Assembly (NCBI RefSeq): GCF_001939115.1
Contig: NZ_MQTZ01000029.1
Coordinates: forward strand, 1-41,519
DNA: 41,519 nucleotides
DNA from: Leptolyngbya sp. 'hensonii'
GTDB taxonomy: Bacteria; Cyanobacteriota; Cyanobacteriia; GCF-001939115
Direction: 5' to 3'
A program made the position numbers and the translations under genes. Under the pieces are notes generated by a model. The model did not search any database. It saw only the letters and a list, made by a program, of their open reading frames with translations, and had not been told where the DNA came from. How positions within the stretch are numbered: the first letter of the stretch is position 1; every line of letters begins with the position of its first letter. This document shows positions 35,914 to 41,026 of the stretch, in pieces.

Positions 35914-36054
35914 ATGAGCCTTGTTGTCCCTGACGAGATTTTAACTGCAACTCGCATGACTGAAGCTGAGATGCGCCAGGAAATTGCTGTCATGCTCTTT
36001 CAGCGCAGCTTCAGAACTGGGAAGCAGGGTGGGAGACGACCATGCATCGCGTGA
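35914..36054 (+). pseudogene. UPF0175-family antitoxin, truncated
   Basis: From ATG 35914, preceded by AGTAAGGAACC, the frame reads MSLVVPDEILTATRMTEAEM and RQEIAVMLFQ, the N-terminal half of UPF0175 antitoxins (helix-turn-helix-like proteins, normally about 80-95 residues, often followed by a PIN-domain or DUF3368 toxin). After LFQ the sequence (RSFRTGKQGGRRPCIA) no longer matches and stops at 47 residues. No toxin gene follows. Its broken end abuts the broken end of the minus-strand restriction-subunit fragment. Confidence 0.65.
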
Positions 36055-36223
36055 CACTTGATGTCTGCAGGTTATTGACCACCTCGATCAGGGAGGCTCT
36101 GCGTCCCTGTTTCACCACAGCGGGGTCGTCGGGCTTTTCTGCCCGGACGCGGTGGGCGTTGGGTTCCTGCCAGGGGGCAAACAGGGGTTCGAGAACAGTG
36201 GGATTGAGGGTGGAGGAGGTCAT
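36011..36223 (-). pseudogene. N-terminal stub of a DEAD/DEAH-type restriction subunit
   Basis: The first about 50 residues, including LEPLFAPWQEPNAHRVRAEK and KQGRRASLIEVVNNL, match the start of the large helicase/restriction proteins (about 900-1000 residues, BPTD_3080-like / type III Res-like) that accompany methyltransferases of the kind found upstream. After NNL (about 36075) homology stops and a short tail leads to a stop at 36011. The ATG (36223) lies 5 bases after the Uma2 stop, as the last gene of the operon. If right, the restriction activity has been lost by a deletion. Identification rests on the N-terminal wording only. Confidence 0.5.
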
Positions 36224-36228
36224 GAAAA

Positions 36229-36810
36229 TCAGAATGAGAGCTTTTGAAATAGATCGGCTACGGGAAACGTAAATCCGGGAATCACCTCTTCTCCATCCAG
36301 AGAATCAACGGATTTCAGCAGCCGATCGGGTTCTTGGGCACAGCGGTAGACAAGGACATAGTGCTGAGTTGGGCTAATCACCCAAACTAAGCGGGCACCA
36401 TTGTCAAAATACTCAGTAATTTTCGTTTCTATCTCCTCTACTGTGTTGCCAGGAGATAAAATTTCCACCGCTAGATCGGGTGCGCCCTCTAGAAAGCCAG
36501 TTGGCAATTCGGTCATACCTTGTAAACGCTCTTTGGCAAAGAAGGAAATGTCAGGAGAGCGTTTATTACCATTTTTCATCTTGAAGGCGGTACTAGAATC
36601 AAACAAAGATCCTAGTTTTTGAGCATTAACAGTAGCAAAAAGAGCAGAGCTTAGAATAATAGCAAGATTGCCATGCAATGCTCCTGAATTTCCCATGTCA
36701 ACCAATTCTCCGTTCACGATCTCATAGCGATGCCCATCTTTGGGCAATGCCATAAATTCTTCATCTGTCCAAACCTTTTTATCAGTTTTTAATTCGATCG
36801 CTGTAGACAC
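36229..36810 (-). CDS. Uma2-family PD-(D/E)XK endonuclease
   Basis: 193 residues. Uma2 (DUF820) proteins are restriction-fold nuclease-like proteins, highly amplified in cyanobacteria and often tied to mobile DNA. Conserved parts: WTDEEFMALPKDGHRYEIVNGELVDM, RSPDISFFAKE, PDLAVEILSPGNT (Asp, Glu) and EIETKITEYFDNGARLVWVI (Lys). The start codon is GTG at 36810, decided by AAGGAGG eight bases upstream. It lies 5 bases before the restriction-subunit stub and 29 bases after xisI, so it is part of the operon. Confidence 0.92.
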   Translation of the reverse strand: MSTAIELKTDKKVWTDEEFMALPKDGHRYEIVNGELVDMGNSGALHGNLAIILSSALFATVNAQKLGSLFDSSTAFKMKNGNKRSPDISFFAKERLQGMTELPTGFLEGAPDLAVEILSPGNTVEEIETKITEYFDNGARLVWVISPTQHYVLVYRCAQEPDRLLKSVDSLDGEEVIPGFTFPVADLFQKLSF

Positions 36811-36839
36811 GAATTACCTCCTTGCAATTACTGTGAATA

Positions 36840-37181
36840 TTAAGCAATAGCAAATTCTGTAAGGGGACGCTTGCTAGGATGCTGAAAACCCAGAACAATA
36901 TCTTCAGCGGGGACTCCAGCTTCTAGTAGATCATTGGCGATGCCCTGTTTCGTCCAGTCTTCTTCGATCCAAATTTTGTCTTGTTCAAGCTTGAGGTAAA
37001 CGGTTACTCCAAAATCTCGCCGCTTGCCATCCCAGCCCACATGAAACCAGAAATAGTGATCGTGTTCTTCATCAAAGGCAACACACTGCTGTACTCCAGG
37101 CTGATTAGCACCCATCGCCCAGTGCTGATAGTCAGTCAGAATTTTTTGAATAATCTGACGGTATTTCTCTAGCTTATCCAT
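36840..37181 (-). CDS. xisI: XisI family protein
   Basis: 113 residues from ATG 37181 (MDKLEKYRQIIQKIL), preferred over a longer frame because AGAGGAG precedes it. The blocks YRQIIQKILTDY, FDEEHDHYFWFHVGWDGKRR and KIWIEEDWTKQGIANDLLEAGVPAEDIVLGFQHPSKRPLTEFA are typical XisI. In Anabaena XisI with XisH controls excision of the fdxN element. Here XisH is absent and no such element is visible, so the role is probably different; XisI-like genes are common strays in cyanobacterial accessory DNA. Confidence 0.93.
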   Translation of the reverse strand: MDKLEKYRQIIQKILTDYQHWAMGANQPGVQQCVAFDEEHDHYFWFHVGWDGKRRDFGVTVYLKLEQDKIWIEEDWTKQGIANDLLEAGVPAEDIVLGFQHPSKRPLTEFAIA

Positions 37182-37194
37182 TGCACAATCTCCT

Positions 37195-37419
37195 CTAAGC
37201 TGCATTTCCTCTGTCGGAGAGCAACTCCGCAATCAATGGTTTTGACTTAGCAAGTTGACTCACTGCCATAATGGAGAAGCCGAGAAGGTTGCCCTCCAAA
37301 TCTACCCGTTCCATAACGGCATCGTTTTCTGTTTCCCGCATATAACCGGGAGCATCCGAGAAAATAACCTCTAGAAAGTCAGCTTCCGGGTCAAACCAAA
37401 CTTTTACTCGCTCTGCCAT
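37195..37419 (-). CDS. DUF2283 protein, possible antitoxin partner
   Basis: 74 residues. Starts VKVWFDPEADFLEVIFSDAPG, has RETENDAVMERVDLEGNLLGFSI and is the usual size for DUF2283. These small proteins are often coupled to toxin-like nucleases. The coding region overlaps the preceding nuclease-like gene by 16 bases, which suggests translational coupling. Antitoxin function is an inference from this pairing. Confidence 0.88.
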   Translation of the reverse strand: MAERVKVWFDPEADFLEVIFSDAPGYMRETENDAVMERVDLEGNLLGFSIMAVSQLAKSKPLIAELLSDRGNAA

Positions 37420-37715
37420 AGGGTTTCTCCTTTTTTGGGTTTATCAGTGAAATAGGCGGTGACAATAAAAGCATCGTCAGGGAGATATTTGACTACCACG
37501 CAAAGCCATTTATCCCCGATCGCCGTTTGGGTATAGAACCGATAGAATAGCGCTGCGCTTTCGTCACTGCGAGATTTGCGTACCAGTTTTGGCTGCTTCA
37601 GAGTTTCAGTGATTTGTGCTTCCATCCCGACCGTTTCAGGGTGGGCAAGAATATGCGCCAACCGTTCTTCGGTCAGGCGTACTTCTCGGTTCTGATAGTC
37701 GAGCAGGGTGAGCAT
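37404..37715 (-). CDS. PBECR-like (RelE/Barnase-related) putative nuclease toxin
   Basis: 103 residues: RLTEERLAHILAHPETVGME, ETLKQPKLVRKSRSDESAALFYRFY, WLCVVVKYLPDDAFIVTAYFTDKPKKGETLW. This fits the phage-type Barnase/EndoU/RelE-like nucleases (PBECR group, also annotated DUF4258-like) that occur next to DUF2283. Candidate catalytic residues are the His of HILAHPE and the Tyr/Arg in the middle; function is not proven. It begins 4 bases after the methyltransferase stop. Confidence 0.65.
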   Translation of the reverse strand: MLTLLDYQNREVRLTEERLAHILAHPETVGMEAQITETLKQPKLVRKSRSDESAALFYRFYTQTAIGDKWLCVVVKYLPDDAFIVTAYFTDKPKKGETLWQSE

Positions 37716-37719
37716 CAGG

Positions 37720-39426
37720 CTATACCTCCACCTCTACGGTAATCGAGGTGTCGCAGCCGAAGGTATCGACGACTTTGACGCAGGCGGTGTATTTGCCTGG
37801 TTGCGGGTAGATGTAGCCCGCATCGCTGATGGTTTTGAGCGATCGATCTTTGCGGGTGCGATAGTCTTGCCAATCGTGGGTGAAGGGTTTGCCTGGTTGC
37901 CAGTTGAAATCCACAGCCCAAAAATCGATAAAGTCAAAGCCACTTGCGATCGCTCGTTCTTTGATGGCTTCCAGTTCTTTGGTGGGCACTTCGGCGAGGG
38001 AGGGGAGGAACTGGGTGATTTTGATGTCTACTTCCCTCACCCCTAGCCTCTCTCCCTCAAGGAGAGGGGAACCGGACTTTTTCTTCTCCCCTTCTCCCTG
38101 GGGAGAAGGGGTTAGGGGATGAGGGCTTTCCCGATACACCGCCTCCGCCGCCAGCACTGCCACCTCCAAAAATGGCGGCGGTGCTTTGCGATTCTTCTCC
38201 ATAATTTCGCGGGGAATCTGCACCAGCTTCAGCTTCATCCCCAACTCCTGCACCAGGGCATTCACCAGCAGATGCAAATCCATCTCAAACTCCCAGGCGA
38301 GGCAATAGCACTCGCGCCCACCCGCCTGCGCCGTCGCCTGCGCCACCTGTTTGGCTTCTTCGCGGGTAAACATCGAGTCAATGCCATCCACATGGCATAC
38401 TGGATTTATACGATTAACGTCATCCCAAATATTTTGTAGAGGGATACCAGAAATCTCATCAAGATAACGCTTGTACTGAGGAACATTTCCGGGCTTATTC
38501 TGAATAATTCTTCCTTCAGCAATAAGCTGCTCCATTCGCTTCTGGCTATATCTCCAGTATCGCCAAACTCCCATTACTTCATAGTAAGGATTACCCTTAG
38601 ATGCACCACCAGGTGCTGTTAAATCAGCCAGCCAGTAGCGTCTTCCATCCTCATCTCTATATCTGTAATACTTGTCAATATACTCCTGACTATAAGGAAC
38701 GTATTGAGTATTGAAAGTAAAGTTTTCTGTTTTGGAATAGTAAAGAAGAATATCTGTAATTTCTCCATAGGCTTCCCTACCTTGTTTAGCATTGTTATGA
38801 GATGTAGATCTTTTCCATATAATTTCAGATCTGAAATTCAAAGATCCAAAAACTTCATCTAATAAAGCTTTTGCATAGTGGGACATTCCCAAATCAAGAT
38901 GTATGTAGATACTTCCTTTTTCACTCAATAACTCACGTATAAGAGTGAAACGCTCAAATAGCATGTGCAAGTAGGAATCTGTTCCTTTTCCCCATATATC
39001 TCTGTAGGCAACCATTTCTAGAGTTGATTGATCCTTAACTAAAGAATCATCTTCTCCAAATGGCACACTCATTGAAAAATCCGCACCCACATCAAACGGC
39101 GGGTCAATATAAATCAGATCCACCTTGCCCTTAAATTCCTGCAACAGCGACGCCATCACCAGCTTGTTGTCGCCCCAGATCAGCCGATTTCTAAAGTCAT
39201 CCTGCTTGGGATTTTGCAGTTCAAAAAGCTCCAACTGCCCCGTCGCTGCCGCTGCCCGTCTGGGTTCATCAATGCTCTCAATCCGCTGCATCGGCATGGC
39301 ACACCCAGCAATATCCACCTCCCGCCGATTGCCATACTCGTCATACTTGCCCTCCCACACCAGTTCCGTTCGTAGCGTCGATAGCGGGTGCGGGTTGTGG
39401 GGACCGTAGGTGGGCGGTTGGGTCAT
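37720..39426 (-). pseudogene. Beta-class DNA methyltransferase (type III Mod-like), lacking the SAM-binding motif
   Basis: 568 residues from ATG 39426 (MTQPPTYGPHNPHPL); the longer frame adds no conserved residues. Motif IV is present (IYIDPPFDVGADF, DPPF at 108-111), with flanking WGDNKLVMASLL and SIYIHLDLGMSHYAKALLDEVFG. In beta-class enzymes the target-recognition part and then YPTQKP and FxGxG (motif I, SAM binding) should follow after INP-type wording. Here NIWDDVNRINP (332-342) is joined directly to CHVDGIDSMFTREEAKQ, part of the far C-terminal region, so motif I is missing and methylation should not occur. A 92-bp palindromic repeat is inserted at residues about 434-464. The frame stays open in spite of both events. 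First gene of a six-gene operon. Confidence 0.75.
38034..38125. repeat. C-rich palindromic repeat inserted in frame in the methyltransferase
   Basis: CCCTCACCCCTAGCCTCTC at the left and GGGTTAGGGGATGAGGG at the right are inverted ends, and CCTTCTCCCTGGGGAGAAGG forms an inner hairpin. On the coding strand it adds SPHPLTPSPQGEGEKKK and LLEGERLGV, a peptide wording that is found as an insertion in many unrelated bacterial proteins. The same core is at 24290-24355, 32480-32580 and 33186-33287. Confidence 0.85.
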
Positions 39427-39707
39427 AAAAGGCAATGAGGTCAAACATCTGCCCTCAATTATAGTCACTGCCCAAAGAACCACCAAATCAGGCTTGTTGC
39501 CGGATGACATGAGCGATCGTGGGGTGGGGTGTGAGGGGCGATTGTCCTAGCGGACACGCCAAAGGCGAACATAGGGATTCTTCACTTTGGATCAGGTACT
39601 CAAGGTGCTGCCCCAACCCATGACTAAAGCGAGATAACGACCAAGATAAGCGGCGGTTAGTAACTTTTGCATCCTCACCGAGATTCCTCAACCGTCCGCT
39701 TCATCGA
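39427..39707. other. Upstream region of the restriction-modification operon
   Basis: About 280 bases between the methyltransferase start and the IS1182 remnant. It must carry the operon promoter; no specific box or gene is recognised. The short minus-strand frame at 39488-39691 has no family features. Confidence 0.4.
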
Positions 39708-40439
39708 GAGACTGTGTAAAAACTTGGGTCAAGGATAAGGGAAAAAGCTAGGATCAAGAATATGGGCGCAAGAGGAGAAAAGAATCATGCCCCATCTTCA
39801 AGGGATAGACCGGAATCAAACGCTGCAATTTCCACCTCGACTCGACGAGTATATTAGCGTCGAGAACCCCGTGCGGTTTTTGGATGTGTTTGTAGATCAA
39901 TTAGACCTGCAAGCGATAGGATTTAGCCGGGGACAGATGTTGCTTACGATGTGCGAATTGCAGTCGATGGGAAGTACAAGTTAATTGCGGTAGCAGAAGT
40001 TACCAACCAAGTCACTGACCAAGCTCAACTGTCGCCGATGGCGACTCAAGCCAAAGCAACGCTGGAGGTGGAAGCTCTCACTGTTGTTGCAGACCGAGGC
40101 TACTACGATGGTGAGGAAGTCAAAACTTTGGTACTCTCAAGCGCGGTATGAATCAGGGCTACTTTTTGCTCAAAGGACTGGAGAAGGTTAGGGGTGAGTT
40201 CAGTTTGAGTGCTCTGGCTTACAATCTCAAGCGGGTCTTCAATATTGTGGGGGTAGAAAAGTTGATTTTAGCCATTACAATGGAAGTAATTGCATAACAA
40301 CAAAGAAGGAAATTGCTGACGATAGATTCAGGTGCCCCTTGTGAGAGCGCTTCAGAATCTATCGATTAGATGGAACGGGGGGACTGAGTCAATTTACAGT
40401 TCCTTGTGAGCGAAGCGTCCTGAGTTTTTACACAGTCTC
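39708..40439 (+). mobile_element. Internally deleted IS1182-family element
   Basis: Perfect 17-bp terminal inverted repeats GAGACTGTGTAAAAACT (39708-39724) and AGTTTTTACACAGTCTC (40423-40439) bound a 732-bp segment. Full IS1182 elements are about 1.6 kb, so much of the middle is gone. The ends look complete, so it could be mobilised by a transposase supplied elsewhere. It contains the remnant described separately. Confidence 0.8.
39787..40297 (+). pseudogene. IS1182-family transposase, deleted and frameshifted
   Basis: Three pieces of one transposase in different frames. N-terminus (39787 on): HLQGIDRNQTLQFPPRLDEYISVENPVRFLDVFVDQLDL, then FSR. After a deletion near 39935, DVRIAVDGKYKLIAVAEVTNQVTDQ and TLEVEALTVVADRGYYDGEEVK, the centre with the second catalytic Asp. 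After another break near 40140, GLEKVRGEFSLSALAYNLKRVFNIVGVEKLI to TAA 40295-40297, the C-terminus. The three pieces are in IS1182 order, so internal segments are missing. Confidence 0.8.
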
Positions 40440-40461: not shown

Positions 40462-40731
40462 CTACAAACGCTGAAGTAACTCATCGTACTCTGCGTGTGC
40501 GCCAATCCAAAACCAGTAAATGTGATCATCTTCTAACAAACCAAGAACTCGGTAGTCTAAACTCACACGCGCCGAATAGATTGGTTGACGCTGGCTAACC
40601 CGTTTGAACTGAAGACTATTGTGGTAAGGATCTGAACACCAAAGTTCATAGGCTTTAGCAGCTTGCTCTTGAACTGATGCAGGAAGAGCATTAAGCTTTT
40701 TGCGAAACGCCTTTGTCACACTTGATTTCAT
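40462..40731 (-). CDS. RelE/ParE-family toxin (type II toxin-antitoxin)
   Basis: 89 residues with the family layout: helices (TKAFRKKLNALPASVQEQAAKAYELWCSDPYH), then strands LQFKRVS, YSARVSLDYRVLGLL and YWFWIGAHAEYDELLQRL. Arg and Tyr/His near the C-terminus are in the positions used by RelE-like ribonucleases and ParE gyrase poisons; which of the two is unclear. It overlaps the antitoxin gene by 4 bases (ATGA), the usual arrangement for coupled translation. Confidence 0.85.
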   Translation of the reverse strand: MKSSVTKAFRKKLNALPASVQEQAAKAYELWCSDPYHNSLQFKRVSQRQPIYSARVSLDYRVLGLLEDDHIYWFWIGAHAEYDELLQRL

Positions 40732-40964
40732 AACTCAGACTGAGTAGGAAAAACTTCAGCTAGAGGTGTAGTATCACCAGCAGCTATTTCCTGTCGAACC
40801 ATCTCAGCCATTCGATCCCATTGCTCATCTGTTGTAGAGTCAAACTGGGCTTTCCATCTTTGCTCATCCTCCATCTCAGCAAGTAAACGAGCAGCAATCG
40901 CATCTTGCTCATCAGCAGGCAGAGTTTTGAGTTGGGCAATTGCTCGTTCAAGTAATTCGGTCAT
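40728..40964 (-). CDS. Antitoxin partner of the RelE/ParE-type toxin
   Basis: 78 residues from ATG 40964 (MTELLERAIAQLKTLPADEQDAIAARLLAEMEDE); the frame can be extended to 40979 without a better site. Acidic, helical, with the LPADEQDAIAARLLAE wording shared by antitoxins that neutralise RelE-like toxins in cyanobacteria. Its last four bases overlap the toxin start. Confidence 0.8.
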   Translation of the reverse strand: MTELLERAIAQLKTLPADEQDAIAARLLAEMEDEQRWKAQFDSTTDEQWDRMAEMVRQEIAAGDTTPLAEVFPTQSEL

Positions 40965-41026
40965 TGCTGCTGACTCCATTAAAGCGGCCTAAGTACGGGA
41001 CAAAAGCTTGCAAAAACTGAATAGGA

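What the first reader, a model, noticed from the sequence alone, without database searches (positions are those of the whole stretch)
36011..36223. Restriction subunit cut down to its first ~50 codons at the operon end
The last minus-strand gene starts like the large helicase/restriction protein that accompanies these methyltransferases (LEPLFAPWQEPNAHRVRAEK, GRRASLIEVVNNL) but ends after 70 codons. Together with the damaged methyltransferase this would mean both enzyme activities of one restriction-modification system have been lost while the small genes between them stay intact. Loss of the nuclease first would make loss of the methylase harmless.
Basis: partly seen in the sequence, partly recalled or inferred. 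Interest (0 to 1): 0.7.

Follow-up and report, generated by a model that had tools for sequence, protein, structure and literature searches.

The report
Wrecked type III restriction-modification operon
A cyanobacterium has lost its type III restriction enzyme, of which only the first 52 codons remain beside a scrap of a mobile element, and the partner methylase is also broken, while four small genes between them survive; this is ordinary gene decay, except that the same survival pattern recurs in other cyanobacteria.

Summary
ORF 36011-36223 (minus) begins with the first 52 codons of a type III Res subunit. Relatives with 47-94% identity carry it as an intact 1137-1166 aa protein (ResIII motor plus PD-(D/E)xK-like nuclease) downstream of a type III Mod. 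Homology stops sharply at 36067. The last 18 codons and the stop come from a 61-bp internal fragment (36006-36066) of the bridge-RNA region of an IS110-family element (89% identical to one in another cyanobacterium). The other side, 35914-36005 (plus), is the first ~31 codons of a convergent UPF0175 gene, also cut. A deletion scar therefore truncates two convergent genes. The rest of res is nowhere else in the genome. Mod (37720-39510) has an in-frame ~140-residue deletion removing the TQKPE and FCGSGTT (SAM-binding) motifs, and no intact copy exists. DUF4258, DUF2283, XisI and Uma2 between them are intact. Its order argument (nuclease first) is not needed for type III, where Res acts through Mod. 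The same small-gene block survives beside differently wrecked mod/res genes in four other cyanobacteria: suggestive, but the sample is small and biased.

The parts
36067..36223 (-). 5' fragment of a type III res gene: first 52 codons, upstream of all helicase and nuclease motifs
   Evidence: 88-92% identity to N-termini of 1140-1155 aa ORFs; homology ends at 36067
36011..36223 (-). 70-codon ORF = 52 Res codons + 18 codons and stop supplied by the IS110 fragment
36006..36066 (.). 61-bp internal fragment of the left-end (bridge-RNA) region of an IS110-family element, starting about 36 bp inside the element
   Evidence: 89% over 61 bp to G480; 84-85% to multicopy elements in G464 and G466; IS110-type transposase downstream in the G480 element; Pfam IS110 match of the related element in L033
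35914..36005 (+). 5' fragment (about 31 codons) of a UPF0175 gene convergent with res; its 3' end and the DUF3368 partner gene are missing
   Evidence: Pfam UPF0175 partial match; 95% DNA identity to G215 ending at 36005; intact UPF0175-DUF3368 pair in G404
36229..36810 (-). Uma2-family gene, intact
   Evidence: Pfam Uma2 1.8e-32; 193 aa as in G085
36840..37232 (-). XisI gene, intact, without XisH
   Evidence: Pfam XisI 1.7e-42; 88% to L110
37195..37419 (-). DUF2283 gene, intact; putative antitoxin of the pair (inference)
   Evidence: Pfam DUF2283; 96% to G085
37404..37715 (-). DUF4258 gene, intact; putative RelE-like toxin (inference)
   Evidence: below-cutoff Pfam DUF4258/PBECR2 matches; family listed as BECR-fold toxin in PMC11980606
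37720..39510 (-). type III Mod methyltransferase with an in-frame deletion of about 140 residues (scar at 38400/38401) removing TQKPE and motif I FCGSGTT

Best explanation
This is the remains of a type III restriction-modification operon (mod - DUF4258 - DUF2283 - XisI - Uma2 - res) that has lost both enzyme activities. Shown: res is cut after 52 codons and joined through a 61-bp piece of an IS110-family element to the 5' end of a convergent UPF0175 gene; mod has lost its SAM-binding core; neither missing part exists elsewhere in the assembly. Inferred: an IS110-family element sat in or next to res, and deletions running out of it into res on one side and UPF0175 on the other removed at least 3.2 kb of res and left the 61-bp scrap. 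The mod deletion is a separate event. The 70-residue peptide is most likely non-functional, since it ends before the motor domain begins. The small cargo genes keep their frames and are probably still made.
For: Res identity and truncation. IS110 fragment. UPF0175 fragment. Convergent res and UPF0175 in an unbroken locus (G389, 0.26 kb apart). Mod deletion. Cargo frames intact: with pairwise dN/dS 0.06-0.23 against relatives. Different lesions in the same operon elsewhere.
Against: The res and Mod remnants also show low pairwise dN/dS (0.06-0.22), so the loss is recent and sequence change does not yet prove release from selection. The Mod frame is still open over 596 codons. G389 is the only unbroken relative seen with UPF0175 beside res, so the ancestral layout is an inference. 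No raw reads were available to exclude misassembly at the joint.
Confidence: 0.93

Rival explanations
1. The joint is an assembly artefact, such as a chimera or a collapsed IS110 repeat, and a full res exists in the organism.
For: IS elements are classic misassembly points; other IS110-family copies in this genome lie at contig ends.
Against: The joint lies mid-contig (36 kb into a 92.9-kb contig) in an assembly scored 99.98% complete, no other res piece exists anywhere in it, and the fragment at the joint has no close copy elsewhere in the genome that could have caused a collapse.
Confidence: 0.03
2. The 70-residue ORF is a functional small protein, for example a truncated Res that binds or regulates Mod or the cargo.
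For: It starts 5 bases after Uma2 and is likely co-transcribed; its first 52 codons are still conserved.
Against: The last 18 residues come from mobile-element DNA; the ResIII match in intact proteins begins only at residues 122-125; the one other similarly short remnant, in G002, is cut at a different point (28 codons).
Confidence: 0.03
3. res was displaced by a reversible or programmed rearrangement, with the remainder stored elsewhere.
For: Phase-variable type III systems are known (general knowledge).
Against: No other part of res found in the genome; the joint contains an internal IS scrap, not a recombinase site.
Confidence: 0.01

Closest known systems
Type III restriction-modification systems (EcoP15I/EcoP1 type)
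   Same: Mod is matched by PADLOC type III methyltransferase models (E 9e-142 for the broken copy, 3e-226 for the intact relative); the intact relative of Res has ResIII and a PD-(D/E)xK-like nuclease region; mod and res lie in one operon.
   Different: This copy is dead: Res is reduced to 52 codons and Mod lacks motif I. Four cargo genes separate mod and res. The intact relatives' Res matches known type III Res models only in part (PADLOC 2.7e-24, NCBIfam below cutoff).
Other decayed copies of the same operon (G002, Roseofilum G213/L111, Thermosynechococcus M98_K2018_005 L110, Gloeomargaritales L112)
   Same: mod and res broken or gone, DUF2283 intact; L110 has exactly the window's gene order.
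   Different: Each has its own lesions. In L112 DUF4258 is frameshifted, and two copies of a DDE transposase flank the small genes.
IS110-family elements with bridge RNA
   Same: The 61-bp filler matches the left-end non-coding region about 36 bp inside the element.
   Different: Only a fragment; no transposase and no element ends remain here.

Membership tests
Type III R-M system | Mod of the beta-type N6/N4 methyltransferase class | tested here: met
   N6_N4_Mtase; PADLOC MTase_III PDLC03633 8.8e-142
Type III R-M system | Complete Mod catalytic core (motif I FxGxG and motif IV DPPF) | tested here: not met
   DPPF present; TQKPE and FCGSGTT deleted
Type III R-M system | Res with SF2 motor and PD-(D/E)xK nuclease | tested here: not met
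   Window has 52 codons only; intact relatives have both
Type III R-M system | Restriction and methylation activity | not testable with these tools
   needs methylome sequencing and plaque assays
IS110-family element | DEDD_Tnp_IS110 transposase and element ends | tested here: not met
   only a 61-bp internal fragment in the window; a related full element in L033 has the transposase
Type II toxin-antitoxin (DUF4258-DUF2283) | RelE/BECR-fold toxin next to an antitoxin gene | tested here: inconclusive
   Weak Pfam DUF4258/PBECR2 hits; model pLDDT 54, too low to use; overlapping gene pair retained across loci

The most novel reading that the evidence does not exclude
The DUF4258-DUF2283 pair is an addiction module that sits inside type III R-M operons and outlives them: mod and res are repeatedly destroyed around it by independent events, while the pair is kept by post-segregational selection.
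Probability: 0.25. Interest if true: 0.5.

Novelty: new member of a known kind. Interest (0 to 1): 0.3.

Why it matters
For this genome, neither the mod nor the res ORF should be annotated as an active enzyme, and no methylation mark from this Mod is expected. More widely, the same small-gene block survives next to differently wrecked mod and res genes in five cyanobacteria, the window's included. That makes a simple question testable: do toxin-antitoxin-like genes carried inside R-M operons persist for their own sake after the R-M enzymes are lost?

Tried and rejected
Pfam and NCBIfam on the 70-aa ORF: no hit, because the Res N-terminus is not covered by a model. tblastn against plasmids: nothing. 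The filler was first thought to be UPF0175 sequence or random DNA; it is neither. A search of the window's own genome for the filler found no close copy, though divergent IS110 copies exist. dN/dS to date the loss: not informative, because the remnants are still conserved. Structure model of DUF4258: too low in confidence to search with. Papers naming DUF4258 and DUF2283 together, or DUF2283 with toxin-antitoxin: none found.

Full report
Observation. The ORF 36011-36223 (minus strand, 70 codons, ATG) begins 5 bases after the stop of the Uma2 gene. A six-frame search of 386 cyanobacterial genomes with its first 52 residues found open frames of 1140, 1155 and 1153 aa whose first 52 residues are 88-92% identical, and three more of about 1150 aa at 71%, 44% and 41%. 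Their full lengths carry Pfam ResIII and a weak TnsA-like nuclease match around the PDF...VETKG motif, with PADLOC type III restriction enzyme as best match. They lie downstream of a Mod methyltransferase.

Where the homology ends. Against three relatives the DNA agrees at 132-140 of 156 positions down to 36067, and then at 17-18 of 63, which is chance. Between 36006 and 36066 lies a 61-bp stretch with 89% identity (E 6e-16) to a site in genome G480 and 84-85% to repeated sites in G464 and G466. In G480 this site sits 36 bp inside an element whose left end begins TTATGGGGGGACAGG, 205 bp before the ATG of a transposase starting MSQDVYAAYIGIDWADRKHD. The related element in L033 is confirmed by Pfam as IS110 family. 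The stretch is thus part of the non-coding left-end region that in IS110 elements encodes the bridge RNA (general knowledge of IS110). It supplies the last 18 codons and the stop of the 70-codon ORF. Divergent IS110 copies exist in the same genome, but none is close enough to be the donor.

The other side of the scar. From 35914 to 36005 (plus strand) the sequence is the first ~31 codons of a UPF0175 gene, 95% identical in DNA to G215 and ending abruptly at 36005. Intact relatives have the full UPF0175 gene followed by DUF3368. In G389 an unbroken res is followed, convergently and 0.26 kb away, by UPF0175 with a DUF3368 remnant between (reading the remnant is by eye). The simplest history is an IS110 insertion in this interval followed by deletions out of the element into both genes. 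Both edges of the scrap lie inside the element, so at least two joints were formed.

The rest of the operon. A search of the whole genome with a full-length Res finds only this fragment, and with a full-length Mod only this locus plus two weak, short matches elsewhere. Mod at 37720-39510 lacks about 140 residues in frame at 38400/38401, covering TQKPEALL and the FCGSGTT motif I needed for SAM binding, while DPPF is kept. DUF4258, DUF2283, XisI and Uma2 are full length. Their pairwise dN/dS against relatives is 0.06-0.23, but the dead genes give similar values, so the losses are recent and this does not separate living from dead genes.

Order of loss. In type III enzymes Mod recognises the site, directs Res and stabilises it (PMC3874151). 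Loss of Mod first would therefore also have been harmless. The sequence does not tell which came first.

Recurrence. Close relatives (81% or more) of the DUF4258 protein occur in seven loci found here, the window's included. G085 has an intact mod and res. UBA999 (L109) has a nearly full res (interrupted by a run of N) and a mod cut by the contig end. Five are wrecked: the window, G002 (mod reduced to both ends, res 28 codons), Roseofilum G213/L111 (only the 3' end of mod left), Thermosynechococcus L110 (same gene order as the window; mod and res with other deletions) and Gloeomargaritales L112 (mod 3' end only, flanked by two copies of one transposase). DUF2283 is intact in all seven and DUF4258 in six. 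The set was largely found with DUF4258 as bait, so retention is overstated. Small genes are also small targets, and in G396 the Uma2 cargo has decayed along with res. Starting from Res instead, six genomes of the 386 have a full-length close relative and two (the window and G002) a truncated one.

Verdict. The added points are the IS110 bridge-RNA scrap at the joint, the second truncated gene, and the recurring survival of a toxin-antitoxin-like pair, which is suggestive only.

Noticed in passing
L033:7584-10676: In genome G011 the Mod gene carries an intein-like insertion with a DUF559 endonuclease domain, exactly within the catalytic motif I (DFF-C...HN-CGSGTT).
   Followed up: partly
L031, L032, L033, L034, L035, L110 and window 36229-37715: The slot between mod and res holds different small modules in different cyanobacteria: XisH-XisI; PIN with Phd-like antitoxin plus DUF2283; DUF4258-DUF2283 with Uma2 or XisI; or nothing (L038, L039).
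   Followed up: partly
L112:6710-10971: Two copies of one DDE transposase flank the surviving small genes where mod and res used to be.
   Followed up: partly
window 38040-38130: The Mod linker carries an in-frame PHPLTPSPQGEGE-type sequence resembling repeats common in cyanobacterial genomes; it is also present in some intact relatives.
   Followed up: no
window 40462-40979: ParE-like toxin gene with an overlapping small upstream gene, a likely toxin-antitoxin pair.
   Followed up: no
window 39787-40151: Fragments of a DDE transposase upstream of the mod operon.
   Followed up: no
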